From an uncultured Pseudomonadota bacterium (GTDB lineage: Bacteria > Pseudomonadota > Gammaproteobacteria > Enterobacterales > Succinivibrionaceae): a DNA stretch of 32,717 nucleotides. Below the pieces are notes generated by a model that was given only the letters and a program-made list of their open reading frames with translations, was not told the DNA's origin and searched no databases. This document shows positions 10,127-32,717 of this stretch, one piece after another. The translations under genes were made by a program, and so were the position numbers. Position 1 is the first letter of the stretch; the number at the start of each line of letters is the position of its first letter. The stretch spans positions 1-32,717 of the forward strand of contig ONPL01000011.1 in assembly GCA_900319705.1 (NCBI GenBank). Direction: 5' to 3'.

Positions 10127-10214
10127 TAACTCCAAATGTATAACGAGTCACAGCAGAGCCGTTACATTTTATCTAAGACAGCTCCTTACCAGGATCAGGG
10201 CTCAGAGAAAACCG

Positions 10215-13203: not shown

Positions 13204-13222
13204 CTGCGCTCCTGTCTGCTCC

Positions 13223-14991: not shown

Positions 14992-14992
14992 C

Positions 14993-15583
14993 CTAATCTC
15001 CGCATTCTTTATTTCTCTTTATGCAGCCGCCGCAGAAGTTCCGGCAGCTTTCCGGACGTGGAAGTCTCCCTACCGGTCCGGTAAATTCAGGTACGAGATC
15101 CACAACCAACCCTGCCAGTTCATCCGGCGCTTCAAGAGCGCTGACCGCAGGCAGTCCGCCTGCTGTCCCGCACCGTCCGGCAATAACACCGCTGACGGCA
15201 AAGGTCTTCTGCGTAACCCGATCTGCAAGTTCCCCTTCATCTGTCAGACAGACTATCCGTGGCAGATCATATTCGTATCCGCCTTCAACGATCACATAAT
15301 CAGGTTCATCAAGCGCAAGAAAATCCAGGATCCGATCTATGGACAGAGCTCTGCTGAACATGATGTCAGTCTCGGTTTTACCTGCAGCCACAGTGATCCC
15401 GGCGCCGGCATTGCGGTGGCGGCGGGTATTGGATGACTTCCCTGAATCAATTGCAAACACCGGACAGTTGATTGATTTGACCGTATCAACGGAATATCCA
15501 TTTTCCCGGAGACTTCTGATCAGCTGCTCAGCCGTGGTGGTCTTTCCCGACCTTCTTACACCCACAATCTGAAACACCCTCAT
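14993..15583 (-). CDS. mobB: Molybdopterin-guanine dinucleotide biosynthesis adapter protein MobB, with Cys-rich tail
   Basis: MobB is a GTP-binding partner of MobA. The P-loop GVRRSGKTT is at residues 8-16 and YVIVEGGYEY is the family's second conserved stretch (usually VEGxK/Y). It is 196 residues, longer than E. coli MobB; the extra C-terminus contains CRNFCGGCIKRNKECG, a four-Cys cluster that may bind metal or FeS. The gene is first in the operon mobB, MOSC-mogA, modA, modB, modC, moeA. GGAGG lies seven bases before the ATG. Confidence 0.88.
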   Translation of the reverse strand: MRVFQIVGVRRSGKTTTAEQLIRSLRENGYSVDTVKSINCPVFAIDSGKSSNTRRHRNAGAGITVAAGKTETDIMFSRALSIDRILDFLALDEPDYVIVEGGYEYDLPRIVCLTDEGELADRVTQKTFAVSGVIAGRCGTAGGLPAVSALEAPDELAGLVVDLVPEFTGPVGRLPRPESCRNFCGGCIKRNKECGD

Positions 15584-15608
15584 TGAAAATCCTCCGGTTA
15601 TCCTGGAA

Positions 15609-15630
15609 GGTCTGTACAGTGGGACAGACC
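15609..15630 (-). promoter_or_regulatory. Hairpin in the leader of the mobB-mod operon
   Basis: GGTCTGT and ACAGACC (arms 15609-15615 and 15624-15630) form a perfect 7-bp stem with an 8-base loop about 25 bases upstream of the mobB start. It has no T run, so it is not a terminator. It is far too small to be a Moco riboswitch by itself. A GATAAAAT stretch at about 15646-15653 (minus) is a candidate -10 element. Confidence 0.4.
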
Positions 15631-15735
15631 TTGATTTCGTTTATTTTATCAAATTGCCATCATCAGCTTACAGCAAAATATGCATTGTGTACCGCAGATC
15701 ACAGCATATTGAGTTAAAAAGAACCAGACTGCGGA

Positions 15736-15773
15736 AATAAAAAAAACCGCAGGGACATGACCATAACCTGCGG
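15736..15773 (-). terminator. Rho-independent terminator of metY-cysK
   Basis: On the minus strand CCGCAGG (plus-strand 15767-15773) pairs with CCTGCGG (15747-15753), a 7-bp GC-rich stem with a 13-base loop, followed at once by eight T residues. It lies about 35 bases after the cysK stop, separating it from the mobB operon. Confidence 0.9.
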
Positions 15774-15807
15774 CTGAAAAAATTTGTGTTCTTGTGAAAT
15801 ACTGCTG

Positions 15808-16749
15808 TTATTTAGGCTGCTCGGTAAACAGGGCGGTAGAATAATATCTGTCACCGCTGTCAGGCAGCAGAGCAACAATAACCTTGCCTTCATTCTCCGG
15901 CTGCTTGGCAAGCTCGATGGCGGCATACAGCGCAGCACCGGAGGAAATGCCCACGGAAACCCCCTCCTTTCTGGCCAGAAGCCGCGCGGTCTCAAAGGAA
16001 TCATCATTGGAAACCTTAATAACCTGATCGTAAACTTTGGTATTCAGTACATCAGGAACAAAGCCGGCGCCGATCCCCTGAATTTTGTGCGGACCCGCCT
16101 TGCCTTCGGAAAGCACCGGTGAATCGGCCGGTTCCACAGCCACCACCTTAACCTCCGGATTCTGCTCCTTCAGATATTCTCCGGTACCGGTAACGGTTCC
16201 GCCGGTACCTACACCTGCAATGAAGAAGTCAACTTTACCGTCGGTATCCTGCCAGATTTCAGGGCCGGTGGTTGCCTTGTGGACTGCAGGGTTTGCCGGA
16301 TTTACAAACTGGCCGGGAATAAAGCTGTTCGGGATCTCTTTTGCAAGTTCCTCCGCCCTGGCAATGGCACCTTTCATACCCTTGGTACCGTCGGTAAGAA
16401 CCAGTTCCGCACCGTAGGCCTTAAGAATATTCCTTCTTTCCACACTCATGGTTTCAGGCATGGTCAGAATAATCCTGTATCCCTTGGCGGCGGCGATTGA
16501 AGCAAGTCCGATCCCGGTATTTCCGGAAGTCGGTTCAATAATTACTGAACCCTCTTTGAGCAGACCTTTAGACTCTGCATCCTCAATCATTGCCTTTGCA
16601 ATACGATCCTTGACGCTTCCGGCTGGATTGAAGTACTCCAGCTTTGCAAGTATAGTAGCTTTCAGATTGAGAGCCTTTTCAATATTTACAACCTCCACCA
16701 GCGGGGTGTTTCCAATAAGACCGAGTGTTCCTTTATATATGTTAGCCAT
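15808..16749 (-). CDS. cysK: O-acetylserine sulfhydrylase (cysteine synthase A)
   Basis: CysK is a cytosolic PLP enzyme that makes cysteine from O-acetylserine and sulfide. The PLP lysine is K47 in NPAGSVKDR, the substrate loop is TSGNTG (74-79), and GTGGT (181-185) binds the cofactor phosphate. At 313 residues it is a normal CysK. A protein-thiocarboxylate-using CysM cannot be excluded by motif, because the two families share these signatures. AAGGT lies before the ATG. It follows metY by 45 bases in one operon and is divergent from the Rrf2 regulator; a terminator follows. Confidence 0.93.
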
Positions 16750-16794
16750 AACTGTATACCTTCTTAAAAATCTTTAAAAACTTAAAACTCTAAA

Positions 16795-18084
16795 TCACAA
16801 CTGTTTGACAGCATTAAAACCTTTTTCAAGATCTGCAATGATATCGTCGATATGTTCCGTACCGATGGAAAGGCGAATGGTGTTCGGACGGATGTTCTGC
16901 TCCAGCAGTTCCTTTTCAGACAGCTGGGAATGGGTGGTTGAGGCAGGATGGATCACCAGACTCTTTACATCGGCAACATTGGCCAGCAGTGAGAAGATCT
17001 TAAGGTTATCAATAAATTTCCAGGCCTCCTTCTGACCGCCCTTTATGTCAAAGGTGAAAATAGAAGCACCGCCGTTAGGGAAGTATTTCCTGTAAAGTTC
17101 GTGATCCGGATGTTCAGGAAGAGAAGGATGATTTACCTTTTCAACCTGCGGATGGTTCTTCAGATATTCCACCACCCTGGCGGTATTCTGGGCATGACGT
17201 TCAAGTCTCAGGGAAAGTGTTTCAACCCCCTGAAGCAGCAGGAATGCGTTAAACGGGGAGATTGCCGCACCGGTATCACGCAGCAGAATTGCTCTTACAT
17301 AGGTTACAAAGGCGGCAGGGCCGGCGGCGTCAAAGAAGGATACACCGTGGTAGCTCGGGTTCGGATCGGCGATGTTAGGATATCTGCCGGATGCTCTCCA
17401 GTCAAATTTTCCGGAATCAACAATCACGCCGCCGAGGGTGGTGCCGTGACCGCCGATAAACTTGGTGGCTGAGTGCACTACAATATCGGCACCGTGTTCA
17501 ATCGGTCTGATCAGATACGGGGTTCCGAAAGTATTGTCAATAACCACCGGCAGACCGTGACGGTGGGCCAGCTGAGCAACCGCGTCAATATCAGGGATGT
17601 CGCTGTTAGGATTGCCGAGGGTTTCCAGGAAAACCGCACGGGTGTTTTCGGTAATGGCGCTCTCCACTTCTTCAAGATTATGAATATCAACAAAAGTGGT
17701 TTTTATTCCATAAAGCGGCAGAGTTTGGGCCAGCAGATTGGAAGTTCCGCCGTAAATGGTTTTCTGGGCAACGATGTGACCTCCGTCAGCAGCCAGAGCC
17801 TGAATGGTATAGGCGATCGCAGCGGCTCCCGATGCCACAGCCAGGGCTGCACTGCCTCCCTCCAGAGCAGCAATTCTCTTCTCCAGCACCTCCTGGGTGG
17901 AATTGGTCAGTCTGCCGTAAATATTACCGGCGTCAGTCAGGCCGAAACGGGCAGCTGCATGTTCACTGTTGTGAAACACATAGGAAGTGGTCTGGTAAAT
18001 CGGTACGGCACGTGAATCGGTAACCGGATCAGCCTGTTCCTGTCCTACATGCAACTGTAATGTTTCAAATCTGTAATCGCTCAT
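16795..18084 (-). CDS. metY: O-acetylhomoserine sulfhydrylase (MetY type)
   Basis: A 429-residue Cys/Met-metabolism PLP enzyme. It should convert O-acetylhomoserine (possibly O-acetylserine) plus a sulfur donor to homocysteine. Family signatures are [26 protein letters not shown], the PLP lysine K208 in [15 protein letters not shown], and [17 protein letters not shown], which is typical of MetY rather than cystathionine gamma-synthase. AAGGAG lies seven bases before the ATG. It is the first gene after the divergent regulatory region, with cysK next, so both are candidates for control by the Rrf2 protein. A second, more divergent paralogue lies at 27064-28404. Confidence 0.92.
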
Positions 18085-18214
18085 GTTAAATCTCCTTGTG
18101 GAATTGTTTTCTCAAATCTTTTCGTCCGAAATACCCGGAACCTCAACTATAACTTTAAACTTTCCGGCGGCGGTCTCTGTTGTTTCGCCCCTGCACCGGA
18201 AGAACTTGTAATTA

Positions 18215-18300
18215 ATTTATAACCATTTACCCACCGTGTCAATAGGTTTTTATTTTTAATTTTTCTTGTTTTACCTATTTACCTTTGGGTATAATAGGTT
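18215..18300. promoter_or_regulatory. Divergent metY / Rrf2 promoter region with repeated ACCTATT boxes
   Basis: Plus strand (Rrf2): -10 TATAAT at about 18290-18295, with a weak -35 TTGTTT 18 bases upstream. The -10 overlaps an inverted repeat, ACCTATT (18272-18278) and AATAGGT (18293-18299). Minus strand (metY): TTGACA at about 18237-18242 with TATAAA or TAAATT as -10. A third AATAGGT overlaps this -35 (18241-18247), and AACCATTTACC (18221-18231) closely resembles ACCTATTTACC (18272-18282). Boxes of one sequence over both promoters suggest that one regulator, probably the Rrf2 protein, controls both directions. Confidence 0.6.
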
Positions 18301-18326
18301 GATTTTAAAAATTAACGGAGATAATT

Positions 18327-18764
18327 ATGATTTCAACCAGAGGAAGATACGCCATCCGCGTTCTTATAGATCTAGCTGAGCATGACAACGGCTGTTACAT
18401 CCCGCTCAAGGATATTGCAGCAAGGCAGGAGATTTCCAAAAAATATCTGGAAATAATTGTCAAGGATATGGTTGCCGGGAATCTGATCGTAGGAGCCAGC
18501 GGCAAAGGTGGCGGATACAAACTGTGCCGCAAACCGGAGGAATACATTATCGGAGATGTGCTCAAACTGATGGAGGAATCCCTCTCCTGCGTATCATGTC
18601 TTGAGGATAATCAGGCAATTGACTGCCCGCGCAAGAATGTATGCCGATCTCTTCCCATGTGGATCGAATACAATAAACTCATTCACAACTTTTTCTACAG
18701 CAAGAAGTTGAGCGATCTGGTAAAGGAACGCAGAGATATTCCTGCAGAAGCCCCGCAGATCTGA
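18327..18764 (+). CDS. Rrf2 family transcriptional regulator (CymR/IscR-like) with four Cys
   Basis: A 145-residue DNA-binding protein with the Rrf2 winged helix: MISTRGRYAIRVLIDLAEH at the start, IAARQEISKKYLEIIVKDM as recognition region and GGGYKL in the wing. The C-terminal half has C88, C91, C100 and C106. Rrf2 proteins use such Cys either to hold an FeS cluster (IscR, NsrR) or, as CymR with CysK, to report cysteine supply. The spacing here differs from the IscR Cx5Cx5C pattern, so cluster binding is uncertain. Divergence from metY-cysK and the shared promoter boxes suggest a sulfur regulator. GGAG precedes the ATG. It is the only well-supported plus-strand gene. Confidence 0.9.
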   Translation: MISTRGRYAIRVLIDLAEHDNGCYIPLKDIAARQEISKKYLEIIVKDMVAGNLIVGASGKGGGYKLCRKPEEYIIGDVLKLMEESLSCVSCLEDNQAIDCPRKNVCRSLPMWIEYNKLIHNFFYSKKLSDLVKERRDIPAEAPQI

Positions 18765-18948: not shown

Positions 18949-18979
18949 CAAAAAACCGCGGAAACTTAAGTTTCTGCGG
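18949..18979 (-). terminator. Rho-independent terminator of the encapsulin-sulfur operon
   Basis: A compact hairpin, CCGCaGAAACTTAAGTTTCcGCGG on the minus strand (plus-strand 18956-18979), is followed by six T residues (plus-strand A run 18950-18955). The stem is nearly perfect over 12 bases. It is about 70 bases after the stop of the TusA-like gene and marks the end of the operon. Confidence 0.88.
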
Positions 18980-19050: not shown

Positions 19051-19302
19051 TCATTCCTCGTTTTTTCTGATGAACAGTTCAAAGGTACCGTCGGAGTTGT
19101 CGGTGATTTTCAGTACTTCATGACCTTCCTCCCTGACACTTCTCGGAACATTCTGGATCGGCTCCCCGTCATTGAGATGAACCTGCAGGATCTGGCCGTT
19201 TTCAAGTTCATCAAGCGCAACCTTGGTTTTAACAAAGGTGATCGGGCAGTTCACATCCGTGATATCTATACGCTCATCCGGAGTAAATTCTGTTTCTGAC
19301 AT
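19051..19302 (-). CDS. TusA/SirA-like sulfurtransferase
   Basis: An 83-residue protein with the TusA fold signature: ITDVNCPITFVKTKVALDEL places the conserved Cys-Pro at C19-P20, then LNDGEPIQNVPRSVREEGHEV. TusA-like proteins accept a persulfide from cysteine desulfurase on this Cys and pass it on. As last gene of an operon containing a desulfurase and two sulfur-carrier systems, it is a good candidate for the relay from the encapsulated desulfurase to the activating enzymes. AAGGAG is seven bases before the ATG. It starts 42 bases after the JAMM gene. Confidence 0.9.
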   Translation of the reverse strand: MSETEFTPDERIDITDVNCPITFVKTKVALDELENGQILQVHLNDGEPIQNVPRSVREEGHEVLKITDNSDGTFELFIRKNEE

Positions 19303-19344
19303 TGTGGTCTCCTTATGTATGGTAGCAGTTACCGTTATATTTTT

Positions 19345-19788
19345 TCAGTTATTCAGATCATCTGTAATAATCAGTTCCTCTTTTCTTGCCGTGCGGTTCT
19401 CACCAGTTCCTTCGACATGGAACCCGTTGAGAACAGGATTTTCTCTGTCGGCAAGTGAAAGGATCAGATAGCTGGCACGGCTGTCATTTGCCCATCTGAG
19501 ATCCTCCTGAGAGGGGCGGGACGGGGTCTCCGGATGTGAATGCCAGTTGCCCAGCGGGGTCAGCTTGTTTGCCCGCATATCCTTCACCGCAGCCAGATGC
19601 TCCGCCGGATCTATGGAAAAATGCTCATTGGTATGATCAATATTGGTCAGAAGGTAAACCTTGCTGATCACTCTGAGCCCGTCATCCGTATCATATCCCG
19701 CAATCAGACCGCAGGCTTCATCCGGCAGTTCGGCCTCGGCATGGCGGCGGATTTTTTCAAAATCACTTCTTGAAATGGTTATTTTCAT
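19345..19788 (-). CDS. JAMM/MPN+ metalloprotease (Mec/HcyD type)
   Basis: A 147-residue zinc peptidase. The JAMM motif is complete: E24 (PDEACG), H83 and H85 (WHSHP), S93 and D96 (RPSQED). In Mycobacterium, Mec releases cysteine from the CysO-cysteine adduct; in Wolinella, HcyD trims the HcyS carrier; in the quinolobactin pathway, QbsD removes a C-terminal dipeptide from QbsE. The protein should therefore either trim the tail of the carrier encoded two genes upstream or free product from it. AAGGAA is eight bases before the ATG. It lies 19 bases after the E1-like gene. A second JAMM protein is at 26583-27074. Confidence 0.92.
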   Translation of the reverse strand: MKITISRSDFEKIRRHAEAELPDEACGLIAGYDTDDGLRVISKVYLLTNIDHTNEHFSIDPAEHLAAVKDMRANKLTPLGNWHSHPETPSRPSQEDLRWANDSRASYLILSLADRENPVLNGFHVEGTGENRTARKEELIITDDLNN

Positions 19789-19807
19789 ACTGCAGTTTCC
19801 TTACAGA

Positions 19808-20617
19808 TTAATGTTTCAGTTCACACACAGCCTGCTCATAATCGATAAGTTCGGTAATCGTAGGATGATCGGAACAAACCGCACATCCATCCCCTCTTGG
19901 AGGAAGCTTGATCTTGTGGAACTCCATTTTAAGTGCATCGTAGGTAAGAAGATAACCTACCAGCAGTTCACCTACACCGGTGATATACTTGACCGCCTCC
20001 ATCGCCTGCAGTGAACCGATCACTCCGCCCATGGCTCCGATCACTCCGGCCTGCTTACAGGTTGGAACAGCATCCTTTGGAGGCGGCTCCTTGAAAATAC
20101 AGCGGTAGCACGGACCTTTACCGGGAACAATGGTGGTCAGCTGTCCTCTGAATCTGATAATTCCGGCATGACTGAAAGGTTTCCCCGCCATTACACAGGC
20201 ATCATTGATCAGAAACTTGGCCGGAAAATTATCGGTGCCGTCGATAATGAAATCATATTCGCGCACCAGTTCCAGAATATTGGAGCTGTCCACAAAATCC
20301 TCATAGGTGTTTACCACAATATCCGGATTGATATCCTTCATGGTCTGGGCTGCCGAAATCACCTTCTTGACCCCGAGATCCTTGGTGGTATGAATAACCT
20401 GACGCTGCAGATTTGACAGATCCACCACATCGGCATCAACGATCCCGATGGTTCCCACACCGGCAGCCGCAAGATATAGTGCCGCAGGGGAGCCGAGACC
20501 GCCGGCCCCGATAATCAGAACTTTTGAGTTCAGAAGTTTTTTCTGCCCCTTCACCCCGATCTCACTGAGCAGAATGTGTCTTGAATACCGTTCAAGCTGC
20601 TCATTAGTAAACGCCAT
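19808..20617 (-). CDS. E1-like adenylyltransferase (MoeB/ThiF/HcyF family)
   Basis: A 269-residue enzyme that adenylates the C-terminal Gly of a ubiquitin-like sulfur carrier. The ATP site GAGGLGSPAA is at about 38-47, the catalytic Asp lies in IIDGTDNF, the conserved Cys is C187 (VPTCKQAG), and the structural zinc site is intact (C170, C173, C245, C248). The start is set at the ATG at 20617 because GGAGG lies eight bases before it; the frame is open further upstream but without a usable start signal. The first 14 bases overlap the carrier gene, so the two are translated together, which makes that carrier its likely substrate. It has no rhodanese domain, unlike the fusion at 24526-25986. Confidence 0.93.
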   Translation of the reverse strand: MAFTNEQLERYSRHILLSEIGVKGQKKLLNSKVLIIGAGGLGSPAALYLAAAGVGTIGIVDADVVDLSNLQRQVIHTTKDLGVKKVISAAQTMKDINPDIVVNTYEDFVDSSNILELVREYDFIIDGTDNFPAKFLINDACVMAGKPFSHAGIIRFRGQLTTIVPGKGPCYRCIFKEPPPKDAVPTCKQAGVIGAMGGVIGSLQAMEAVKYITGVGELLVGYLLTYDALKMEFHKIKLPPRGDGCAVCSDHPTITELIDYEQAVCELKH

Positions 20618-20822
20618 AACTGCCACCTCCCATAAAATACAGGAATTCAACTTCATCACCGTCATTAAGGATAGCCGTTGCAAAAGTTTCCTGTTTCACG
20701 AATTCCCCGTTCACAGATACTGTCACATACTGCGGTGTTTCAACCTTTTCAATTTCAATCAGCTGCTGAACCGTAATTCCGTCAGCAACTTCCTTTCTCT
20801 TTCCTGCAACAGATATAAACAT
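20604..20822 (-). CDS. ThiS/HcyS-like sulfur carrier protein with a tail after Gly-Gly
   Basis: A 72-residue ubiquitin-like carrier (MFISVAGKRKEVADG at the start, LNDGDEVEFLYFMGGG near the end). Such proteins carry sulfur as a C-terminal glycine thiocarboxylate. Gly65-Gly67 is followed by five further residues (SYGVY), so the glycine is not free and the protein would need trimming; a JAMM protease is encoded two genes downstream. The DNA for the tail also forms the ribosome binding site (GGAGG) and start codon of the E1-like gene. The ATG at 20822 has AAAGGAA eight bases upstream and is preferred to an in-frame TTG at 20846. The 'FLYFMGGG' end looks closer to HcyS-type carriers than to thiamin ThiS. 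Confidence 0.9.
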   Translation of the reverse strand: MFISVAGKRKEVADGITVQQLIEIEKVETPQYVTVSVNGEFVKQETFATAILNDGDEVEFLYFMGGGSYGVY

Positions 20823-20855
20823 ATATGTTATTCCTTTATTTTTCAATTATTTAAA

Positions 20856-21815
20856 CTAAATTATATAGAACCACTGGTTTCCCGGTTTTACCTCTTCAAT
20901 CTGCAGTCTGTGATCGGAGGTCTGGTATTCCATTTCAGGATTCTTTACCCTGACCTTGGTATTGGCTGGAACCGATGATGTTATAAATGTATTACCACCG
21001 ATCACCGTATTATTTCCAATCACGGTCTCCCCTCCCAGAATGGAGGCACCCGCATATATGGTTACATTATCACCGATGGTAGGATGACGCTTGAATCCGG
21101 AGAGCTTCTGCCCTCCCCTGGTGGAAAGCGCCCCGAGGGTCACCCCCTGGTATACTTTCACATTTTTGCCAATAATCGCAGTCTCCCCGATTACGATCCC
21201 GGTACCGTGATCTATAAAGAAACCGGCACCGATGGTGGCACCAGGGTGAATGTCTATCCCTGTTCTGGCATGTGCAAATTCGGTCATCAGTCTCGGAATG
21301 ACCGGCACTCCCAAAAGATACAGTTCGTGGGCAAGGCGGTACACCGTACCGGCGGTAAGCCCCGGGTAAGCAAGAATTATCTCCTCAAGGCTTCCTGCAG
21401 CCGGATCACCGTCAAATGCTGCAAGAAGGTCGGTTTCCACCAGCGCCCGCACCTGCGGAAGTCTTCTGAAAAACTCACTGCAGATCCGGAAACTGTCTTT
21501 TTTCCTAATCTCCTCAGGTTTGGTACCGCGCTCCTTACCGAAGTCAAGAGCCTTTACCACCAGCTTGTTAAGATGATAAAAAACATTTTCTACCGTCACG
21601 GCTACCGAATGCTGCCGGTTGTAAATTTTAATATTGCGATCCTTGTAATAACCGGGATATACAATCCCGAACAGTTCAGTTACGAGATCATAAACCTCCT
21701 GCCGGTCCGGCTTACTGTAGAAATCCGGATCATCTATGTGTTTGGTGCTGTTGAGATCCGCCACCACAATCCGTACCAGCTCATCAAGCGCGTGGATTTT
21801 TTCTTCATCTATCAT
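20856..21815 (-). CDS. cysE: Serine O-acetyltransferase (EpsC-like, encapsulin-associated)
   Basis: A 319-residue serine acetyltransferase that makes O-acetylserine, the cysteine synthase substrate. The C-terminal left-handed beta-helix is clear: HPGATIGAGFFIDHGTGIVI with the catalytic His, then GETAIIGKNVKVYQGVTLGA and GASILGGETVIGNNTVIGG. The N-terminal half is helical. It is longer than E. coli CysE (273 residues), as in the EpsC-like form known beside family 2A encapsulins. The ATG at 21815 has GGAG six bases before it; a GTG at 21845 falls inside the hairpin at 21836-21868 and is unlikely. The gene follows the desulfurase by 75 bases. Confidence 0.9.
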   Translation of the reverse strand: MIDEEKIHALDELVRIVVADLNSTKHIDDPDFYSKPDRQEVYDLVTELFGIVYPGYYKDRNIKIYNRQHSVAVTVENVFYHLNKLVVKALDFGKERGTKPEEIRKKDSFRICSEFFRRLPQVRALVETDLLAAFDGDPAAGSLEEIILAYPGLTAGTVYRLAHELYLLGVPVIPRLMTEFAHARTGIDIHPGATIGAGFFIDHGTGIVIGETAIIGKNVKVYQGVTLGALSTRGGQKLSGFKRHPTIGDNVTIYAGASILGGETVIGNNTVIGGNTFITSSVPANTKVRVKNPEMEYQTSDHRLQIEEVKPGNQWFYII

Positions 21816-21835
21816 TACATTCTCCGGACTTTCAC

Positions 21836-21868
21836 TAAAAGGCACGGTTTTCCGATAGTTCCGTGCCT
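21836..21868 (-). terminator. Terminator-like hairpin inside the operon, between desulfurase and serine acetyltransferase
   Basis: On the minus strand AGGCACGG (21861-21868) pairs perfectly with CCGTGCCT (21840-21847), an 8-bp GC-rich stem with a 13-base loop, followed by TTTT (21836-21839). It begins 23 bases after the desulfurase stop. The short T run suggests partial termination or a processing/stability element, which would give more encapsulin and cargo mRNA than mRNA for the six downstream-encoded biosynthetic functions. Confidence 0.65.
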
Positions 21869-21890
21869 GCTTGACATAAGCGACTGAAAA

Positions 21891-23522
21891 CTAGGCAAAA
21901 GTTCTCAGCGCACGCACCAGTGCGTCAATGTCACTCTCCGAGTTGTAGATCCCCAGAGTAGGTCTTACCGTACTTTCATAACCGAAATGTCTGAGCACCG
22001 GCTGGGCGCAGTGATGTCCGGTACGAACGGCGATCCCGTAGGAGTCAAGTCTCTGTCCAACCTCCTCGTCGGAATGTCCCGCCAGTTTGAACGCAAGGGC
22101 GGATGCCTTGTTGTCTGCGGTCCCCACCAGGGTAATCCCGGGAACACTCCTGAGTTCTCTTAACGCATACTGAAGAAGTTCATGCTCACGTCTGAACACA
22201 CACGGCATACCGATCCCGGAAAGATAATCGAGAGCCGCACCAAGCCCAACCGCATCGGCAATGCTGCCGGTACCGGCTTCGAACTTGTTCGGAACATCGT
22301 TGTAGATGGTACGTTCAAAGGTTACATCCCTGATCATGTTGCCGCCTCCGTGGTACGGTTCGGCCGCACGTAAAAGTTCCTTCTTGCCGTATACCACGCC
22401 GATCCCGGTAGGAGCATAAATTTTATGTCCGGAGAATACGAAGAAATCCGCATCCCACGCACTTACGTTTACCGGAATATGGGCAACAGACTGAGCTCCG
22501 TCAATCAGAATTCTGACGCCGTGACGGTGGGCAATCGCAATGAGTTCCTCAACCGGGGTTACGGTTCCCAGAACATTGGATACATGGGTTACCGACACAA
22601 ATTTTGTTCTTGGAGAGAACAGCTTTTCATATTCGCCCAAAAGCAGCTGTCCGGTTTCATCACAAGGAATAACCTTGATTACCGCTCCGGTCTGCTGGGC
22701 AATAAGCTGCCACGGAACAATATTCGCATGATGCTCCAGGATCGAAACAATTATTTCATCGCCTGGTTGCAGCTGCGGACGCACATAGGCATTTGCCACA
22801 AGATTGATCGCCTCGGTGGTGCCGCGGACAAACACAATCTCCTCTCTGGAGGATGCTCCGATGAAATTTCTGACAATATCCCTTGCATTCTCGTAGGCAT
22901 CGGTGGATCTTGCAGCCAGGGTATGAGCACCGCGGTGCACATTGGAATTCTCATAACGGTAGTAATGGGAAATTCTGTCTATAACCTGCTGGGGACGCTG
23001 GGTGGTGGCTCCGTTGTCCAGCCACACCAGCGGGTAACCGTTGATCTTCTCCGACAGTATTGGAAAATCACTGCGGATCTGGCCAAGGGTTTTAGTACCG
23101 ATCCGGATCCCGTCCTCAGAAGTACCGTGGGAAACTGCAGAAGCAGTCACTGCCTCTGACTGTGCCTGCTCTCTGCCCTGATTTTCCAACGCTTCGGCCT
23201 GCTCGGCAGACAGTACTTTCGGAGCATAACCTGTATTCTGAGCGGTTCCGGCAGACTGTTCCGGCTGACTTGGATAGTCAAACGGATGTTCCCAGTCAAA
23301 ACCGCCGGCAGATCCGGCCGCAGAACTTAGCTGTGCATTCTGCGATACCGCTTCATAACCCTGGGCCGGGACCGGAGCGGCTGCAGCTTCAGCTTCAGCC
23401 GACTGCCCGTAGATATCCCCGGTCAGATCAGGGAAGAGCTGATTGGCAAGAGCACTCAGTTGCGCAGCCGACGGCACCCCGGCAAGCTGCTCGAATGATC
23501 CTGTCTGATTAGTCGTAGTCAT
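21891..23522 (-). CDS. Cysteine desulfurase with long disordered N-terminal cargo domain (encapsulin cargo)
   Basis: A SufS-type (group II) PLP enzyme of 543 residues that takes sulfur from cysteine as a persulfide and leaves alanine. The catalytic part starts near residue 145 (TLGQIRSDFPIL): H264/H265 in ILEHHANIVPW, PLP lysine K367 in FSGHKIYAPTG, catalytic C505 in RTGHHCAQPVL. The first ~140 residues are rich in Ala, Gln, Ser, Gly and Glu, look disordered, and carry two more conserved-looking islands, QLSALANQLFPDLTGDIYG (21-39) and FDWEHPFDYP (75-84). In family 2A encapsulins such an extension loads the enzyme into the shell. Start ATG 23522, overlapping the encapsulin gene by 14 bases; in-frame upstream non-ATG starts are possible. 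Confidence 0.95.
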   Translation of the reverse strand: MTTTNQTGSFEQLAGVPSAAQLSALANQLFPDLTGDIYGQSAEAEAAAAPVPAQGYEAVSQNAQLSSAAGSAGGFDWEHPFDYPSQPEQSAGTAQNTGYAPKVLSAEQAEALENQGREQAQSEAVTASAVSHGTSEDGIRIGTKTLGQIRSDFPILSEKINGYPLVWLDNGATTQRPQQVIDRISHYYRYENSNVHRGAHTLAARSTDAYENARDIVRNFIGASSREEIVFVRGTTEAINLVANAYVRPQLQPGDEIIVSILEHHANIVPWQLIAQQTGAVIKVIPCDETGQLLLGEYEKLFSPRTKFVSVTHVSNVLGTVTPVEELIAIAHRHGVRILIDGAQSVAHIPVNVSAWDADFFVFSGHKIYAPTGIGVVYGKKELLRAAEPYHGGGNMIRDVTFERTIYNDVPNKFEAGTGSIADAVGLGAALDYLSGIGMPCVFRREHELLQYALRELRSVPGITLVGTADNKASALAFKLAGHSDEEVGQRLDSYGIAVRTGHHCAQPVLRHFGYESTVRPTLGIYNSESDIDALVRALRTFA

Positions 23523-24468
23523 AATATTCACCAACCTCTACATCTTCCAGAACCGCAATTGCATCATCAGCCAGAATAGCTGCAGAGCAGTACAGTGACA
23601 ACAGATATGAGGCAACACCCTTGTCATCAATACCGCGGAAACGTACCGAAAGTCCTCTTGAGTGTTCATTCTTGAGGCCGGCCTGGAACAGACCGATAAC
23701 ACCGCGTTTTGCTTCACCGGTTCTTACCAGCAGAATATTGGTTTTACCGCTCTGGGAGGTAGGATTCTTCAGACCGTCAACCAGCAGTTTATCTGTAGGG
23801 ATAATAGGGATGCCTCTCCAGGTGAGGAAGGTACCGCCGGAAATATTAACCACTACCGGAGGAACTCCTCTCTTGGTGCATTCTCTTTCAAAGGCAGCGA
23901 TAGCTCTTGGATGAGCCAGGAAGAATGAAGGTTCCTTCCATACCTTGGTAATAAGTTCATCAAGATCATCAGGGGTCGGAGCTCCGTTTCTGGTCTGGAT
24001 CCTCTGGGAATCTGCAATATTTTTCAGCAGACCGTAGTCATCATTGTTGATCAGCTGGCTTTCCTGACGTTCTCTCAGAGATTCAATTGCAAGAGAAAGC
24101 TGTTCCTGAACCTGATCATACGGAGAACTGTAAACATCCTCGATTGCAGTATTTACGTTGATGATGGTTGAAATTGAATTGAGCTGATACTCACGAGGTT
24201 CTGTTTCATATTCCACATAACCTTCCGGAATAATATCGGACTTTTTGGTCTGACTGCACAGAACATCAAGCGGAGTATCACCCTCCACCACCTTGTTCAC
24301 TCTGAAGATCCCGGTTTCAAGACCTTTGAATTCCAGGAATTTTGTCAGCCACTTCGGTGTCAGAGAGCCGAACTGCGGTCTGGTTTTGGTCACATTGGCC
24401 AGATTATATGCAGCGGCCTTGCCGAGAGCATTGATCTGGGTATTTTTCTGGTTTTCATTTGATGACAT
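23509..24468 (-). CDS. srpI: Family 2A encapsulin shell protein (SrpI-like)
   Basis: A 319-residue HK97-fold protein that self-assembles into a nanocompartment. It matches, from memory, the Synechococcus SrpI family nearly throughout: TKTRPQFGSLTPKWL, then GIFRVNKV, EPREYQLNSISTIINVNT, YSSPYDQVQEQLSLAIESL, NGAPTPDDLDELITKVWKEP, FFLAHPRAIAAFERECTKRG, FLTWRGIPIIPTDKL, LSVRFRGIDDKGVASYLLSL, and AILADDAIAVLEDVEVG. The length fits family 2A; there is no cyclic-nucleotide-binding insertion as in family 2B. AGGAG lies eight bases before the ATG. The desulfurase gene overlaps its end by 14 bases, giving coupled shell and cargo synthesis. Characterised relatives enclose cysteine desulfurase, respond to sulfur starvation, and in one case store sulfur. 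Confidence 0.96.
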   Translation of the reverse strand: MSSNENQKNTQINALGKAAAYNLANVTKTRPQFGSLTPKWLTKFLEFKGLETGIFRVNKVVEGDTPLDVLCSQTKKSDIIPEGYVEYETEPREYQLNSISTIINVNTAIEDVYSSPYDQVQEQLSLAIESLRERQESQLINNDDYGLLKNIADSQRIQTRNGAPTPDDLDELITKVWKEPSFFLAHPRAIAAFERECTKRGVPPVVVNISGGTFLTWRGIPIIPTDKLLVDGLKNPTSQSGKTNILLVRTGEAKRGVIGLFQAGLKNEHSRGLSVRFRGIDDKGVASYLLSLYCSAAILADDAIAVLEDVEVGEYYDYD

Positions 24469-24525
24469 TTAAATATCTCCTAATAACAATAACAAAAACA
24501 TAGCGCTTGATGAAAAGTTCGGACT

Positions 24526-25986
24526 TTAAATCCATCCGCCCTCTCCTGATAAAATCAAATCCTTCATTGAATCAAGACCTCCGCGAAGGCTGTACAGCGG
24601 TCCGAGATAACCTGCTTCACGCAGGGTTCTGACGGCAAGAACACTCCGCTTTCCTTCCTTACAGATAATCACGGTGTCATGTTCAGGGTTCAGTTCCCTC
24701 TTTCTGCGTTCAAGCTGACCGATCGGAATAACCACCGCACCGGAAAAACGCAGTATGGTTCGTTCATGCGGTTCACGGACATCAACTATGGTGAGTGGAT
24801 CTCCATCGGCAATTCTTCTGGCCAGTTCCTCCGGGGAAATCGTTTCCACCGGAATTTCTGTATTCTCCTGTTTGAGACCGCAGAAATCTTCATAATCAAA
24901 ATTCTCCACCGCAGTTACAGAAGCGTTGTCTCCGGATACCGGGCATGTACTGTTTCTGGCAACCTTCAGAAGTTCGGTCTTCAGATTGAGCACATCGATC
25001 CTGAACAGTCTGCCGGAAAGCGGCTCGCCGATCCCGATAATCAGCTTCAGAGCTTCATTAGCCTGGATACTTCCCACAATTCCGGGAAGAGAGCTGATGG
25101 TACCGTTTTCAGCGCAGGTCGGAACCAGTCCCGGTGCCGGAGGCTCCGGAAACAGACATCTGAGGCACGGACCGCCGTTGTAGTTGAGCACGGTAACCAG
25201 GCCCTCATACTGGTAGATGGCGCCGAAAACCAGCGGGATCCCGGCAATCACACAGGCATCGCTGATCATATATCTGGCCTTGTAATTATCAGTACAGTCA
25301 ATCACCAGATCGCATCCGCTGATCAGTTCCAGCGCATTGGATGCTTCAAGAGCCACCTTTTCGTCCTCGATTGCAATACCGCGGTTAACCGACCTGATCC
25401 GATCTTTTGCCGATGCAACCTTCGGACGTTTCAGATCACGCTGCGTGTAGAGAACCTGATTCTGAAGATTCCCCAGGGCAACGGAATCAAAGTCGATGAT
25501 CCGCAGAGTTCCGACACCGGCGGCGGCAAGACATTCAATCACCTGTGAACCTAGAGCGCCCAGTCCCACTACTGCCACTTTGGCCGCCTTGATTCGTTTC
25601 TGGCCCGGAACACCGATATCACGCAACAGCAGATGTTTGCTGAAACGTTCTATTTCATCCCCGTCAAGTGACTGTGATTTCCTTCTTTCGTCGGAAATAA
25701 TGCTTTCGGACGGAGCCCCTCCTGCAATCAGCGGCAGAAGCAGCACCTGCTGTTCATCAGCGATTTCCCGCTCATGAAATGACACATCGGTCCAGTCCTC
25801 CCCCGCTACAAAAATGCGGATAAAGGATCTCAGATTACCGTTATCAAACAGTCCCTTCTGCGCATCCGGATACTGTTTGGTCAACTGTTGAAGGATATTA
25901 CTGACCGTCACCTTCGGGATCTGCAGTTCAATTTCAGAATTTCTTCCGAAGAACTGCCTCAGTGTTGCTGATATATATACTTTCAT
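24526..25986 (-). CDS. Sulfur carrier - E1-like adenylyltransferase - rhodanese triple fusion
   Basis: A 486-residue protein with three parts. Residues 1-90 are a MoaD/CysO-type ubiquitin-like carrier (MKVYISATLRQFFGR; ends VLLLPLIAGG). A linker (91-110) leads to a MoeB/MoeZ-like domain (about 111-350): ATP site GLGALGSQVI, IDCTDNY, catalytic-type C291 (VPTCAENG), zinc Cys C274 and C277. The second zinc pair reads CPVSGD, so only C348 remains and the fourth ligand is Ser. Residues 380-486 are a rhodanese with active loop CKEGKRS (C442). Separate CysO and MoeZ do these jobs in Mycobacterium. The carrier's Gly-Gly (89-90) is buried inside the chain. The ATG at 25986 (AGGA six bases upstream) is preferred to one at 25992. 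It is first in the operon, 57 bases before the encapsulin. Confidence 0.92.
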   Translation of the reverse strand: MKVYISATLRQFFGRNSEIELQIPKVTVSNILQQLTKQYPDAQKGLFDNGNLRSFIRIFVAGEDWTDVSFHEREIADEQQVLLLPLIAGGAPSESIISDERRKSQSLDGDEIERFSKHLLLRDIGVPGQKRIKAAKVAVVGLGALGSQVIECLAAAGVGTLRIIDFDSVALGNLQNQVLYTQRDLKRPKVASAKDRIRSVNRGIAIEDEKVALEASNALELISGCDLVIDCTDNYKARYMISDACVIAGIPLVFGAIYQYEGLVTVLNYNGGPCLRCLFPEPPAPGLVPTCAENGTISSLPGIVGSIQANEALKLIIGIGEPLSGRLFRIDVLNLKTELLKVARNSTCPVSGDNASVTAVENFDYEDFCGLKQENTEIPVETISPEELARRIADGDPLTIVDVREPHERTILRFSGAVVIPIGQLERRKRELNPEHDTVIICKEGKRSVLAVRTLREAGYLGPLYSLRGGLDSMKDLILSGEGGWI

Positions 25987-26582: not shown

Positions 26583-27074
26583 TCAATACATAATTACAAC
26601 AGAGCCAATATTATTCTGTTTCGCGGCCGCCACCCGCATTTCAACCGCAGATCCATCTGACATAGTTTTCTTCCATACCCTCGGAGCATAAACTAACTCC
26701 GGCGTAACCGAAAAAATCATATACGCAAGCTCCGGGATCATCCCGTCAAGATCACGGTCCGACGGCACCGCCCTTCTGTCAGGATGTGAATGGTAGAATC
26801 CGGCCACTTCGAAGCCAAGTTCCGACCAGTACTGCTCCATTCTGAACAGCCGCAGCGGATTGATTCTGTAGGAATCGAGTGAATCGCTACCCTGACTGCA
26901 GTTTTCCGCCATGCAGAACTGCCTGATCCTGACTGTTGTCACCTCAGATCCGCCAATTTGTTTCAGCAGTACTCCGCAGGCCTCTGCGGGATACTGTCCG
27001 GCCACATGACTGCGGATCCCCTCTAGCACAGTATTGTCAATTTCAATCGAGGTTCCGGCGACGTTACTGTTCAT
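26583..27074 (-). CDS. Second JAMM/MPN+ metalloprotease
   Basis: A 163-residue zinc peptidase, clearly a different subtype from the one at 19345-19788. Its JAMM residues are E31 (PAEACG), H95 and H97 (YHSHP), S105 and D108 (VPSDRD). It overlaps the end of the second metY gene by 11 bases, so the two should act together: the protease would cleave homocysteine (or cysteine) from a carrier after MetY has attached it, or trim a carrier before use. The carrier within the fusion protein at 24526-25986 is a plausible partner. AGGAAA lies about nine bases before the ATG. Confidence 0.92.
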   Translation of the reverse strand: MNSNVAGTSIEIDNTVLEGIRSHVAGQYPAEACGVLLKQIGGSEVTTVRIRQFCMAENCSQGSDSLDSYRINPLRLFRMEQYWSELGFEVAGFYHSHPDRRAVPSDRDLDGMIPELAYMIFSVTPELVYAPRVWKKTMSDGSAVEMRVAAAKQNNIGSVVIMY

Positions 27075-28404
27075 GTCGGCTTTTTCCTATGGCATTGAGA
27101 AAATCTTCTATCAGATCCTCCTTGTTCTCTATGCCTACACTTATACGGATCGTGTCCTCAAAAACTCCGGCAGCCTCGGCCTCCTCTTTGCTGTTATGAC
27201 GGTACAGCGTTGAAGCCGGATGAATAACCAGAGTTCTTATGTCCCCCAGATTGCTGGCAATCTTGACATACCTGAGTGAATTGATCACCTCAAAGGCTCT
27301 CTCACGGCTCCCCACCCTGATGGTCAGGATCCCTCCGCCATATCCGTTCAATTCGCGCTCAACAAACTCATGATCCGGATGATGCGGAAGAGTAAGATAG
27401 TTGACAGTGATATCCTTCTCCTGATCCAGTCTTTCAGCCAGAGCTGCCGCATTTTCGCAGATCCTCTCCATTCTCAGGCCGAGGGTATCCACCCCGACGT
27501 AGGAAAGATATGCGTTGAGAGGTGAAATGCAGCCTCCGAGATTACTGCATATTTCCGTGCGGGCTCTTACGGAAAAAGCCATTTTCCCGTACTGACTGAA
27601 TTCCTCCAGAGCACCGTGCTTTGAAAAATCCCAGTTGAATTTTCCTCCGTCAACAATCATTCCGCCGATGGCATTACCGGTACCGTTCATATATTTTGAT
27701 GTCGAATGGATAACCACATCGGCACCCAGAGCAAGCGGTCTGGCAAGATAAGGGGTGGCGGTTGTTGCATCCACCACAAGCGGCACTGCATGCTCATGAG
27801 CAACCGCTGCAACCGCAGGCACATCCATAACCGACAGCGACGGATTTCCAATGAGTTCACCGAAAACCACCCTGGTCCGTTCACTGATTACCGCACGTAC
27901 ATTTTCTGCATTAAGTTTCGGTACAAAGACGGTATGGATCCCGAGTTTTTCGAAATTCCTCAGTAACCTGATGGTTCCGCCGTACAGGCCGGAACCGGCA
28001 ATAATTTCATCCCCGCTTCTGCAGATGGTCAGCAGAGCTGACGAAACCGCAGCCATTCCGCTACCGGTGCAGATCGCTCCGGCACCTCCCTCCAGCGCAC
28101 ATATTTTCTGTTCAAAGGCGGCTATGGTAGGATTGCCGATCCTCGTATAGGCAAATCCGGGAGCTCTGTGCGCAAAAACATTTTCCAGAGCCTCCATGTT
28201 TTCATACTGGAATGAAGTAACCTGCGATACCGGAGGCAGGAGTTCCCTCTGTGCATATCCCCTGGAAACCTTTCCGTGAAGAATCGATGTATTAAATCTA
28301 CAATCCTGTGTCATAAAATCTGCCAACAAAAAACAATCAAAATTCCGGCTGTTCAAACGACCGTGGACGAAACAACAACCATGTCCGACTAATCGGTCTG
28401 TCAT
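27064..28404 (-). CDS. Second O-acetylhomoserine/O-acetylserine sulfhydrylase-like PLP enzyme
   Basis: A Cys/Met-metabolism PLP enzyme, divergent from the metY at 16795-18084. Visible motifs: LLPPVSQVTSFQYENM, FAYTRIGNPTIAAFEQK, LYGGTIRLLRN, PLP lysine K237 in HSTSKYMNGTGNAIGGMIV, and [17 protein letters not shown]. Its pairing with a JAMM protease resembles MetY-HcyD of Wolinella, where MetY uses a protein thiocarboxylate as sulfur donor. The start at 28404 is favoured by AAGGTGG seven bases upstream and by a promoter whose transcript would begin just before it. That gives a 446-residue protein with about 30 unusual N-terminal residues (GHGCCFVHGR). Homologues more likely start near the ATG at 28314, which has only a poor ribosome binding site. 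Confidence 0.88.
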   Translation of the reverse strand: MTDRLVGHGCCFVHGRLNSRNFDCFLLADFMTQDCRFNTSILHGKVSRGYAQRELLPPVSQVTSFQYENMEALENVFAHRAPGFAYTRIGNPTIAAFEQKICALEGGAGAICTGSGMAAVSSALLTICRSGDEIIAGSGLYGGTIRLLRNFEKLGIHTVFVPKLNAENVRAVISERTRVVFGELIGNPSLSVMDVPAVAAVAHEHAVPLVVDATTATPYLARPLALGADVVIHSTSKYMNGTGNAIGGMIVDGGKFNWDFSKHGALEEFSQYGKMAFSVRARTEICSNLGGCISPLNAYLSYVGVDTLGLRMERICENAAALAERLDQEKDITVNYLTLPHHPDHEFVERELNGYGGGILTIRVGSRERAFEVINSLRYVKIASNLGDIRTLVIHPASTLYRHNSKEEAEAAGVFEDTIRISVGIENKEDLIEDFLNAIGKSRHEQ

Positions 28405-32359: not shown

Positions 32360-32717
32360 TTCTGTTTTTGCTCCTGTTTCAACAGTTGTTACAGCATTGA
32401 TCTTATCACATTCAACCTCCTTGAGCATCTTTTCATGACAGCAATCAACTATTTGAAAAATATATGCTACCTTTTAAAAATCACTCGTTACCTCCATTTC
32501 GCATGTACCGGTCATATGTTCAAGGTTCTTGTGGAAAAACACGGTATCAACGGGCAGTTGAGGCAGAAATAATAGATAACAGAACAGGAATAAGACCGTC
32601 AGTTAACCATAGTGAATTATAGCGAACCTGAAGAACTGACCATTGGCATCTCTGAACTGGATGACATTGAGAACAAAATAGATCTTGAAGTAATCTCTAA
32701 AGAGATTAACAGAAGAG
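32360..32717. other. Right-edge region upstream of luxS, unassigned
   Basis: About 358 bases. The luxS leader holds an orphan AAGGAGG (32416-32422) followed by ATG-TGA. Beyond it I find only short, conflicting open frames: a 45-codon plus-strand frame from the ATG at 32435, another of about 52 codons from 32464, and a plus-strand frame open from 32594 to the window edge (possible GTG start at 32612) with acidic residues such as ELDDIENKIDLEVISKE. None has a ribosome binding site or recognisable motif. The last could be the start of a gene beyond the edge. Confidence 0.3.

What the first reader, a model, noticed from the sequence alone, without database searches (positions are those of the whole stretch)
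19051..25986. Encapsulin nanocompartment operon merged with a complete protein-thiocarboxylate sulfur pathway
Seen: one eight-gene minus-strand operon, carrier-E1-rhodanese fusion, family 2A encapsulin, desulfurase with cargo domain, serine acetyltransferase, ThiS/HcyS-like carrier, E1-like enzyme, JAMM protease, TusA-like protein, with short gaps or overlaps throughout and a terminator at 18949-18979. Known: family 2A shells enclose cysteine desulfurase and are linked to sulfur starvation and storage; separately, CysO/MoeZ/Mec and HcyS/HcyF/HcyD/MetY make cysteine or homocysteine from carrier thiocarboxylates. Inference: sulfur released by the packaged desulfurase is routed by TusA and rhodanese onto the carriers and then to O-acetylserine or O-acetylhomoserine, so the shell would be a sulfur store feeding protein-bound sulfur synthesis without free sulfide. 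I do not know of a description of this combination.
Basis: partly seen in the sequence, partly recalled or inferred. Interest (0 to 1): 0.93.

Follow-up and report, generated by a model that had tools for sequence, protein, structure and literature searches.

The report
Caged desulfurase with ubiquitin-like sulfur carriers
Rumen and gut bacteria of several phyla keep, in one gene cluster, the genes for a virus-like protein cage and its sulfur-releasing enzyme next to two ubiquitin-like sulfur carriers and their activating enzymes, and together these would likely pass sulfur on carrier proteins, without free sulfide, into the amino acids cysteine and homocysteine.

Summary
The eight genes are real; two more upstream (an O-acetylhomoserine sulfhydrylase and a second JAMM protease, to 28314) belong to the conserved cluster. 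Among the 80 nearest shell relatives (of 546 found), 73 of 74 with enough upstream sequence have the carrier-E1-rhodanese fusion directly before the shell; of 37 with 8 kb on both sides, 31 also encode the second carrier. None of 18 ordinary family 2A loci from Pseudomonadota and a cyanobacterium shows them. Carrier-linked shells form one group in a shell tree (98/88). An Aliarcobacter plasmid has the parts unfused beside a CysM-like synthase. The cluster merges family 2A encapsulin systems with two classes of ubiquitin-like sulfur operons catalogued in 2006; I found no description of the merger, but could not read supplements. All 84 distinct fusions keep P-x-[IV]-A-G-G before a variable linker, as a JAMM site would. 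The mechanism (caged desulfurase to rhodanese/TusA to carrier thiocarboxylate to cysteine and homocysteine) is inferred; weakest is the second carrier's sulfur source, since a sulfite reductase gene lies in 10 of 80 loci. New variant of a known kind.

The parts
27064..28314 (-). OAHS2: O-acetylhomoserine/O-acetylserine sulfhydrylase-like PLP enzyme (likely ATG at 28314; open frame to 28410)
   Evidence: PF01053 360.9 bits; TIGR01326 407.8, below its cut-off of 495.1; found in 31 of 37 loci with 8 kb on both sides
26583..27074 (-). JAMM2: second JAMM metalloprotease
   Evidence: PF14464 52.9 bits; motif HSHPDRRAVPSDRD; 70 of 71 loci; absent in view from L070, L100, L101, L103, L104
26439..26466 (-). 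promoter-like site before the fusion
   Evidence: TTGATT-16-TATAAT with TG before the second hexamer (consensus match only, 19 found in the region against 14.1 expected)
24526..25986 (-). Fusion: ubiquitin-like carrier + E1 (ThiF/MoeB) + rhodanese in one frame, with internal LIAGG|A
   Evidence: ThiS, ThiF and Rhodanese Pfam domains; P-x-[IV]-A-G-G in 84 of 84 distinct relatives; AlphaFold2 model
23509..24468 (-). Family 2A encapsulin shell protein
   Evidence: NF041162 493.6 bits against 380; solved relatives 8t6r and 6x8m/6x8t SrpI
21891..23534 (-). Cysteine desulfurase with about 150-residue N-terminal extension (likely ATG at 23522)
   Evidence: SufS subfamily 545.3 bits, cargo model 763.2 against 800; catalytic Cys and PLP Lys kept; N-terminal motifs kept
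20856..21845 (-). Serine O-acetyltransferase (EpsC/CysE-like)
   Evidence: NF041874 154.1 bits against 150; 34 of 37 loci
20604..20846 (-). ThiS/HcyS-like sulfur carrier ending FMGGG-SYGVY
   Evidence: TIGR01683 64.0 bits; GGG plus a tail in 65 of 65 distinct relatives
19808..20617 (-). E1-like (MoeB/ThiF) enzyme without rhodanese
   Evidence: PF00899 288.5 bits; MoeB subfamily NF004281 288.6 against 266
19345..19788 (-). JAMM1 metalloprotease
   Evidence: PF14464 87.8 bits; JAMM motif in 55 of 55 relatives
19051..19302 (-). TusA-like sulfurtransferase
   Evidence: PF01206 75.8 bits; 30 of 37 loci
18949..18979 (-). Intrinsic terminator
   Evidence: stem and T run read in sequence; fold -17.1 kcal/mol, z -2.0
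18327..18764 (+). Rrf2-family regulator (flank; between the IscR and CymR models, over neither cut-off)
   Evidence: PF02082 100.1 bits; IscR 86.9, CymR 77.6
15808..18084 (-). Flanking METY (16795-18084) and CYSK (15808-16749)
   Evidence: TIGR01326 626.2 against 495.1; TIGR01139 466.6 against 350.95

Best explanation
This is a conserved sulfur gene cluster in which a family 2A encapsulin shell and its cysteine desulfurase are encoded together with two ubiquitin-like sulfur carriers, two E1-type enzymes and JAMM proteases, and the caged desulfurase likely supplies sulfur that would be loaded on the carriers as thiocarboxylate to make cysteine and homocysteine. Shown here: the genes, their conservation as a set, one origin of the linkage in the shell tree, invariant glycine ends and kept catalytic residues. 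Inferred, step by step: (1) the desulfurase is packaged by its N-terminal extension and turns cysteine into persulfide or stored sulfane sulfur. (2) The rhodanese domain of the fusion, or TusA, collects that sulfur outside the shell. (3) A JAMM enzyme cuts behind Gly-Gly, freeing the fused carrier and trimming the short tail of the ThiS-like carrier. (4) The E1 domains adenylate the freed glycine and sulfur is placed there. (5) The fused-type carrier feeds O-acetylserine made by the acetyltransferase (cysteine, CysO-like); the ThiS-like carrier feeds O-acetylhomoserine through OAHS2 (homocysteine, HcyS-like). (6) JAMM releases the product from the carrier, as Mec does for CysO-cysteine. The homocysteine arm would move cysteine sulfur to homocysteine without cystathionine; all three Cys_Met_Meta_PP enzymes over cut-off in this genome score best with sulfhydrylase models.
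For: Linkage: fusion 5' of the shell in 73 of 74 loci, JAMM2 70 of 71; of 37 with 8 kb on both sides ThiS-like 31, E1 33, JAMM1 31, TusA 30, OAHS2 31, SAT 34. One group in the shell tree, 98/88, 1 change. Absent from 18 ordinary 2A loci. Split version with CysM-like synthase. P-x-[IV]-A-G-G in 84 of 84 fusions, linker 21-37 residues, Gly-Gly loop pLDDT under 50. ThiS-like carrier has GGG plus a tail in 65 of 65. Rhodanese CKxGxRS: C, G, R and S invariant in 84 of 84, K in 76. Desulfurase Cys and Lys kept. JAMM2 within 60 bp of the fusion in 53 of 61. Separate thiamine ThiS and no MoaE in this genome. Known chemistry: MoeZR charges CysO, Mec releases cysteine (PMC3227635 passages).
Against: No direct evidence of sulfur flow. 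A sulfite reductase gene lies in 10 of 80 loci and this genome has one elsewhere. Some loci lack JAMM2 (L070, L100, L101, L104) and L103 shows no JAMM in 20 kb. Making cysteine from cysteine sulfur is circular unless the shell is a store. OAHS2 is not closest to Wolinella MetY 3ri6: 273 bits against 321 for the best chain. By the CXXC rule of PMC3227635 the fusion's E1 is MoeBR-type, which did not charge CysO there; and the window copy has lost the fourth cysteine (Ser, 1 of 84). The window's cargo model and OAHS2 scores are below curated cut-offs. METY and CYSK, which use free sulfide in their known relatives, lie beside the cluster.
Confidence: 0.5

Rival explanations
1. Shared regulon, separate flows: the shell and desulfurase store or detoxify sulfur from cysteine, while the ThiS-like carrier is charged from sulfite or sulfide made by sulfite reductase; the genes sit together because all are needed under sulfur limitation.
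For: Sulfite reductase gene in 10 of 80 loci; Pseudobutyrivibrio sp. YE44 has sulfate activation, SiR and siroheme genes in the same cluster; class 4e operons of PMC1779556 join carrier, JAB, E1, SirA, SiR and OAH sulfhydrylase; half-modules are shuffled or apart in some genomes.
Against: 70 of 80 loci show no SiR in the stretch held (many stretches are cut short), and the rhodanese-bearing fusion is fixed beside the shell in 73 of 74.
Confidence: 0.3
2. The fused ubiquitin-like domain is not freed; it is a docking or regulatory domain of the E1-rhodanese, which charges only the separate ThiS-like carrier.
For: PMC1779556 describes ThiF proteins with a fused ubiquitin-like domain beside a separate ThiS and suggests a different role for the fused domain. 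Some loci lack JAMM2.
Against: A-G-G and the preceding proline are invariant in 84 of 84 although the linker behind them varies; the domain is a separate gene ending AGGI in Aliarcobacter; JAMM2 is next to the fusion in most loci.
Confidence: 0.1
3. The carriers serve molybdenum cofactor or thiamine synthesis, tRNA thiolation or protein tagging rather than amino-acid synthesis.
For: Molybdopterin genes and a molybdopterin oxidoreductase lie downstream in the window and no separate MoaD was found. The fused carrier hits MoaD_arch and SAMP1 models below cut-off.
Against: No MoaE in 8 of 8 genomes searched. A ThiS sits beside ThiG elsewhere in this genome. The recurrent neighbours in relatives are SAT, sulfhydrylase and TusA. 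tRNA thiolation and tagging were not tested.
Confidence: 0.06

Closest known systems
Family 2A encapsulin-cysteine desulfurase systems (SrpI/CyD of Synechococcus elongatus, PMC8049743; survey PMC8346489; passages read)
   Same: Shell family, desulfurase with N-terminal extension, serine acetyltransferase and a rhodanese nearby
   Different: Adds two carriers, two E1 modules, JAMM proteases, TusA and a sulfhydrylase; rhodanese fused to carrier-E1; cargo N-terminus lacks the YYFL-like motif of the unlinked ones (0 of 79 against 17 of 21)
ThiS/MoaD + E1-rhodanese + JAB + cysteine synthase operons (classes 4c and 4d of PMC1779556; M. tuberculosis, listed under 4d, is the CysO/Mec organism)
   Same: Carrier, E1, rhodanese and JAMM together; Aliarcobacter also has a CysM-like synthase
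   Different: Here carrier, E1 and rhodanese are one protein, tied to an encapsulin and desulfurase; E1 has CXXC motifs (MoeBR-type rule)
ThiS/MoaD + JAB + E1 + SirA + OAH sulfhydrylase operons (class 4e of PMC1779556, which lists Wsuc and Gmet; HcyS/HcyF/HcyD/MetY of Wolinella, recalled)
   Same: ThiS-like carrier, E1 without rhodanese, JAMM1, TusA (SirA family), OAHS2
   Different: Joined to the encapsulin half; sulfite reductase is on another contig in this genome and in 10 of 80 loci only
ThiF proteins with a fused N-terminal ubiquitin-like domain (Campylobacter jejuni type, PMC1779556 passages)
   Same: Ubiquitin-like domain N-terminal to an E1 domain, with a second stand-alone ThiS in the operon
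   Different: Described as typically in thiamine operons, with one exception (Pelobacter propionicus, beside OAH sulfhydrylase and cysteine synthase); here a rhodanese is also fused, Gly-Gly is invariant, and an encapsulin is next door

Membership tests
Family 2A encapsulin system | Shell matches the family 2A model over its cut-off | tested here: met
   NF041162 493.6 against 380
Family 2A encapsulin system | No cNMP-binding domain in the shell (2B has one) | tested here: met
   319 residues, only SrpI-like in Pfam at E 0.001; 2B model 381.4, below its cut-off of 400
Family 2A encapsulin system | Neighbouring cysteine desulfurase with a long N-terminal extension | tested here: met
   but the curated cargo model NF041166 scores 763.2, below 800, matching only from residue 112
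Family 2A encapsulin system | Shell assembly and loading of the desulfurase | not testable with these tools
   needs purification and electron microscopy
CysO/MoeZR/CysM/Mec cysteine pathway | Carrier with a Gly-Gly end | tested here: inconclusive
   Gly-Gly invariant in 84 of 84 but internal in the fusion; at the end plus one residue in Aliarcobacter
CysO/MoeZR/CysM/Mec cysteine pathway | E1 of MoeZR type (NYRD in place of the first CXXC, second mostly missing) | tested here: not met
   CXXC present: first 84 of 84, second 83 of 84; the exception is the window, so it is not filed as MoeZR
CysO/MoeZR/CysM/Mec cysteine pathway | Cysteine synthase in the cluster | tested here: inconclusive
   CYSK lies beyond the terminator, METY and Rrf2 in the window; CysM-like gene in Aliarcobacter; a cysteine synthase hit in 9 of 80 loci
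HcyS-type homocysteine pathway (class 4e) | ThiS-like carrier, E1 without rhodanese, JAMM, SirA/TusA, OAH sulfhydrylase | tested here: met
   together in relatives
HcyS-type homocysteine pathway (class 4e) | Sulfate/sulfite reduction genes in the operon | tested here: not met
   none in the window cluster; SiR on contig C189; met in Pseudobutyrivibrio sp. YE44
HcyS-type homocysteine pathway (class 4e) | Thiocarboxylate formed on the carrier and used by the sulfhydrylase | not testable with these tools
   needs mass spectrometry and enzyme assay

The most novel reading that the evidence does not exclude
The encapsulin is a protein-bound sulfur hub: a caged desulfurase hands sulfane sulfur to a self-contained ubiquitin-like polyprotein (carrier, E1 and rhodanese in one chain) that a JAMM protease cuts into carrier and activator. 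Together with a second carrier it makes cysteine and homocysteine with no free sulfide, giving the caged sulfur a dedicated exit and replacing cystathionine-based transsulfuration. The coupling arose once and spread among Bacillota, Pseudomonadota, Fibrobacterota and Campylobacterota.
Probability: 0.33. Interest if true: 0.88.

Novelty: new variant of a known kind. Interest (0 to 1): 0.76.

Why it matters
Two open ends would meet. What takes up the sulfur of family 2A encapsulins is not settled in the passages I read, and the sulfur donor of carrier-based cysteine synthesis is stated as unknown in PMC3227635 (passage). A conserved cluster that holds both makes each testable in culturable rumen isolates (Pseudobutyrivibrio and other Lachnospiraceae strains). 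The fusion with an invariant internal Gly-Gly and a neighbouring JAMM gene is also a clean test case for ubiquitin-like precursor processing in bacteria.

Tried and rejected
Chance neighbourhood: rejected by the 80-locus survey and by near-saturated synonymous sites. Recent transfer or contamination as the cause of the high shell identity: unlikely, because identity at fourfold sites is mostly 20-40% in all genes compared with Bacillota and Fibrobacter loci while the shell stays at 90-93% amino-acid identity. The window's LuxS is 98% identical to one in a same-genus genome, so the contig fits its bin. Intein-like 650-residue shell in G011: it is a stretch reading N, not an intein. OAHS2 as a close relative of Wolinella MetY 3ri6: not supported by rank (organism name recalled). 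Riboswitch control: no Rfam hit at gathering threshold in the window. In one search a loose JAMM pattern was mis-specified and gave 0; only the strict pattern is used. In one search the fusion-to-shell gap was measured in only 3 loci and is not used.

The unlinked set is 16 Pseudomonadota loci (17 of 398 genomes counting the window's own; two stretches only 3 and 6 kb), two plasmid loci, and 5 of the 6 Bacillota loci besides the centre genome (7 of 398 counting the centre; L168 ends 0.7 kb upstream of the shell). The tree used 24 hand-picked linked loci plus the window, L127 and L166; long branches and an unsettled bootstrap were flagged. The fusion alignment for the model used 39 of 65 candidate loci plus the window. 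Literature. 'encapsulin' with 'thiocarboxylate' gave 0 papers, with 'MoeB' 1 and with 'rumen' 1, both unrelated by title and abstract start. Supplementary tables (for example the Pfam neighbour table of PMC8049743) could not be read and may list ThiF.


Full report
WHAT IS THERE. The window is a whole contig (G000:C65) of a 2.54-Mb genome, 96% complete. Its family in the genome set includes Ruminobacter-named rumen genomes, and its shell groups with theirs, so I take the host to be a Succinivibrionaceae member. The eight genes of the finding are confirmed with the domains claimed. Two genes upstream, a second JAMM (26583-27074) and an OAH-sulfhydrylase-like enzyme (27064-28314), belong to the conserved cluster, although here 596 bp with promoter-like sites separate them from the fusion. 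The terminator at 18949-18979 is supported. Flanks: Rrf2 regulator, metY and cysK, then molybdopterin genes.

CONSERVATION. Eighty loci were fetched by shell similarity (80 kept of 546), mostly rumen and gut Lachnospiraceae by record title, with Succinivibrionaceae and Fibrobacter; nine records bear strain names with neither 'MAG' nor 'uncultured', for example Pseudobutyrivibrio xylanivorans DSM 14809. The fusion is directly 5' of the shell in 73 of 74 with at least 1.7 kb upstream, the desulfurase 3' in 76 of 77, JAMM2 in 70 of 71. In 37 loci with at least 8 kb on both sides: fusion 37, JAMM2 36, desulfurase 37, SAT 34, ThiS-like 31, E1 33, JAMM1 31, TusA 30, OAHS2 31. The 8 kin genomes with a readable shell, and 2 more with a masked or split one, all have the fusion. 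Gene order falls into two half-modules, [JAMM2-fusion-shell-desulfurase-SAT] and [OAHS2-TusA-ThiS-like-E1-JAMM1], which are arranged differently between lineages. JAMM2 and the fusion overlap or lie within 60 bp in 53 of 61 loci. A protein search with the fusion scored 8000 candidates and found 6693 at E 1e-30 or better; the 120 listed all carry ThiF and rhodanese domains, and those with a source name are called MoeB or adenylyltransferase and sulfurtransferase.

CONTRAST. Ordinary family 2A loci do not show this. None of 16 loci from 398 Pseudomonadota genomes (two of them short stretches) and neither of two plasmid loci (Synechococcus elongatus pANL, Azospirillum) shows a carrier, an E1 or a JAMM by my profiles; they show SAT (not in the 3-kb stretch), shell and desulfurase, some with a weak fusion-profile hit of 15-30 bits, which in S. 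elongatus is the annotated rhodanese. Of 6 Bacillota loci from 398 genomes (besides the centre genome G447, which has the cluster) one has fusion, ThiS-like, E1 and JAMM1, and five do not, one of those being cut off 0.7 kb upstream. In a tree of 50 shells the 27 carrier-linked ones lie on one side of a branch (98/88; 1 change; 0 of 500 shuffles as low), with Aliarcobacter at the base and an unlinked Bacillota shell (L165) as neighbour.

A SPLIT VERSION. Plasmid pACIB of Aliarcobacter cibarius carries CysM-like synthase, JAMM, carrier ending AGGI, E1, rhodanese, shell, desulfurase, cysE, a small protein and cysK in that order, with IS110 and IS5 copies inserted; IS5 lies between the E1 and rhodanese parts. 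The fusion profile matches carrier, E1 and rhodanese there in the same order (77.5, 406.8 and 87.2 bits), and its JAMM is closer to JAMM2 than to JAMM1 (131.1 against 56.5). This is the gene set of classes 4c/4d in PMC1779556 (passages; M. tuberculosis is listed under 4d), placed next to an encapsulin.

THE CARRIERS. All 84 distinct fusions keep P-x-[IV]-A-G-G; the next residue is A 60, S 18, V 5, K 1; the linker behind varies from 21 to 37 residues, 65 of them with 23. In the first 91 positions of 40 aligned fusions only five columns are invariant, three of them A-G-G. The AlphaFold2 model (mean pLDDT 81.2, pTM 0.61) drops below 50 at residues 88-91, the I-A-G-G loop, and also at 291-296, 371-378 and the end; its best fold matches are Uba4, MoeB and ThiF. 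All 65 distinct ThiS-like carriers have GGG followed by residues: 43 have one, 11 two, 4 three, 3 five, 3 six, 1 fourteen. An E1 needs a free glycine carboxylate (established chemistry of MoeB/ThiF), so both carriers would need trimming. The JAMM motif is kept in 55 of 55 JAMM1 and 69 of 73 JAMM2. Against a dedicated JAMM2: L070, L100, L101 and L104 have JAMM1 alone and L103 none in view.

THE CARGO TAG. The desulfurases of linked loci share N-terminal motifs (Y-x-P-x-V-x-S in 77 of 79, D-W-E-H-P-F-like in 60 of 79) that were not found in the unlinked ones (0 of 21), and lack the aromatic YYFL-like motif of the unlinked ones (0 of 79 against 17 of 21). That these are loading signals is inference.

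AGE. Identity at fourfold sites is mostly 20-40% against Bacillota and Fibrobacter loci (range 18-41%, and 14 of 24 in one TusA pair), while the shell stays at 90-93% amino-acid identity there and partners at 48-88%. The linkage is old and kept by selection, and the shell is the most constrained product.

WHERE THE SULFUR COMES FROM. This is the least secure step. Against: SiR lies in 10 of 80 loci; in Pseudobutyrivibrio sp. YE44 the cluster runs CysD-like, CysN-like, JAMM2, fusion, shell, desulfurase, SAT, OAHS2, SiR, TusA, thioredoxin, ThiS-like, E1, JAMM1, siroheme genes; this genome has SiR with siroheme genes on contig C189. I favour desulfurase to fusion for the cysteine arm, and either source for the homocysteine arm. 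Cofactor use is unlikely: a ThiS sits with ThiG on C122, and MoaE was not found in 8 of 8 genomes.

KNOWN OR NEW. PMC8346489 (passages) gives SAT and rhodanese as the most enriched partners of desulfurase family 2A systems; 'ThiF', 'MoeB' and 'sulfur carrier' do not occur in its main text. PMC8049743 (passages) has 0 for ThiF, MoeB and JAMM. PMC1779556 (passages) describes the carrier operon classes merged here, has 0 for desulfurase, and suggests that JAB might free fused carriers. PMC3227635 (passages) gives the CysO/MoeZR/CysM/Mec scheme and says the sulfur source is unknown. PMC12407261 (passages) cites desulfurase encapsulins as sulfur storage. The Wolinella HcyS work and the primary sulfur-storage paper are recalled, not read. 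No paper found joins the two fields; supplements were not readable. Verdict: a new variant of family 2A encapsulin systems, formed by merging with both carrier classes.

Noticed in passing
window 486-15583: A molybdopterin pathway (MoaA, MoaC, MobA, MobB, MoeA, MOSC-MoaB-type, ModABC) beside a formate-dehydrogenase-like molybdopterin oxidoreductase, yet no MoaE was found in the genome and its only ThiS/MoaD-family hits are the two cluster carriers and a ThiS beside ThiG. How the dithiolene sulfur is inserted is unexplained.
   Followed up: partly
window 31835-32428: A LuxS unlike the genome's other copy (C112, 36% identical); relatives of 69% or more occur in 8 of 41 kin genomes searched, 7 of which also match the encapsulin family.
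   Followed up: partly
window 24526-25986, residue 379 of the 514-residue open frame: The window's fusion has Ser where 83 of 84 distinct sequences have the fourth CXXC cysteine of the E1 domain.
   Followed up: no
window 15808-18764: METY and CYSK are 83-89% identical to genes near several Lachnospiraceae clusters (L032, L054, L063, L082, L084, L093), with an Rrf2 regulator in some; a wider sulfur island may have moved together.
   Followed up: partly
L153 (Pseudobutyrivibrio sp. YE44) 522-15875: One same-strand run from CysD/CysN-like genes through the encapsulin cluster, sulfite reductase and carrier genes to siroheme synthesis: a sulfate assimilation cluster with a cage in it.
   Followed up: yes
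L127 4340-8985: IS110 and IS5 copies interrupt the Aliarcobacter plasmid version; IS5 separates the E1 and rhodanese parts.
   Followed up: partly
window 23509-24468 and relatives: The shell keeps 90-93% amino-acid identity against Bacillota and Fibrobacter loci while synonymous sites are near saturation, more constrained than its partners.
   Followed up: yes
window 8397-9767: An AAA_14/DUF4143 ATPase gene lies among the molybdopterin genes.
   Followed up: no
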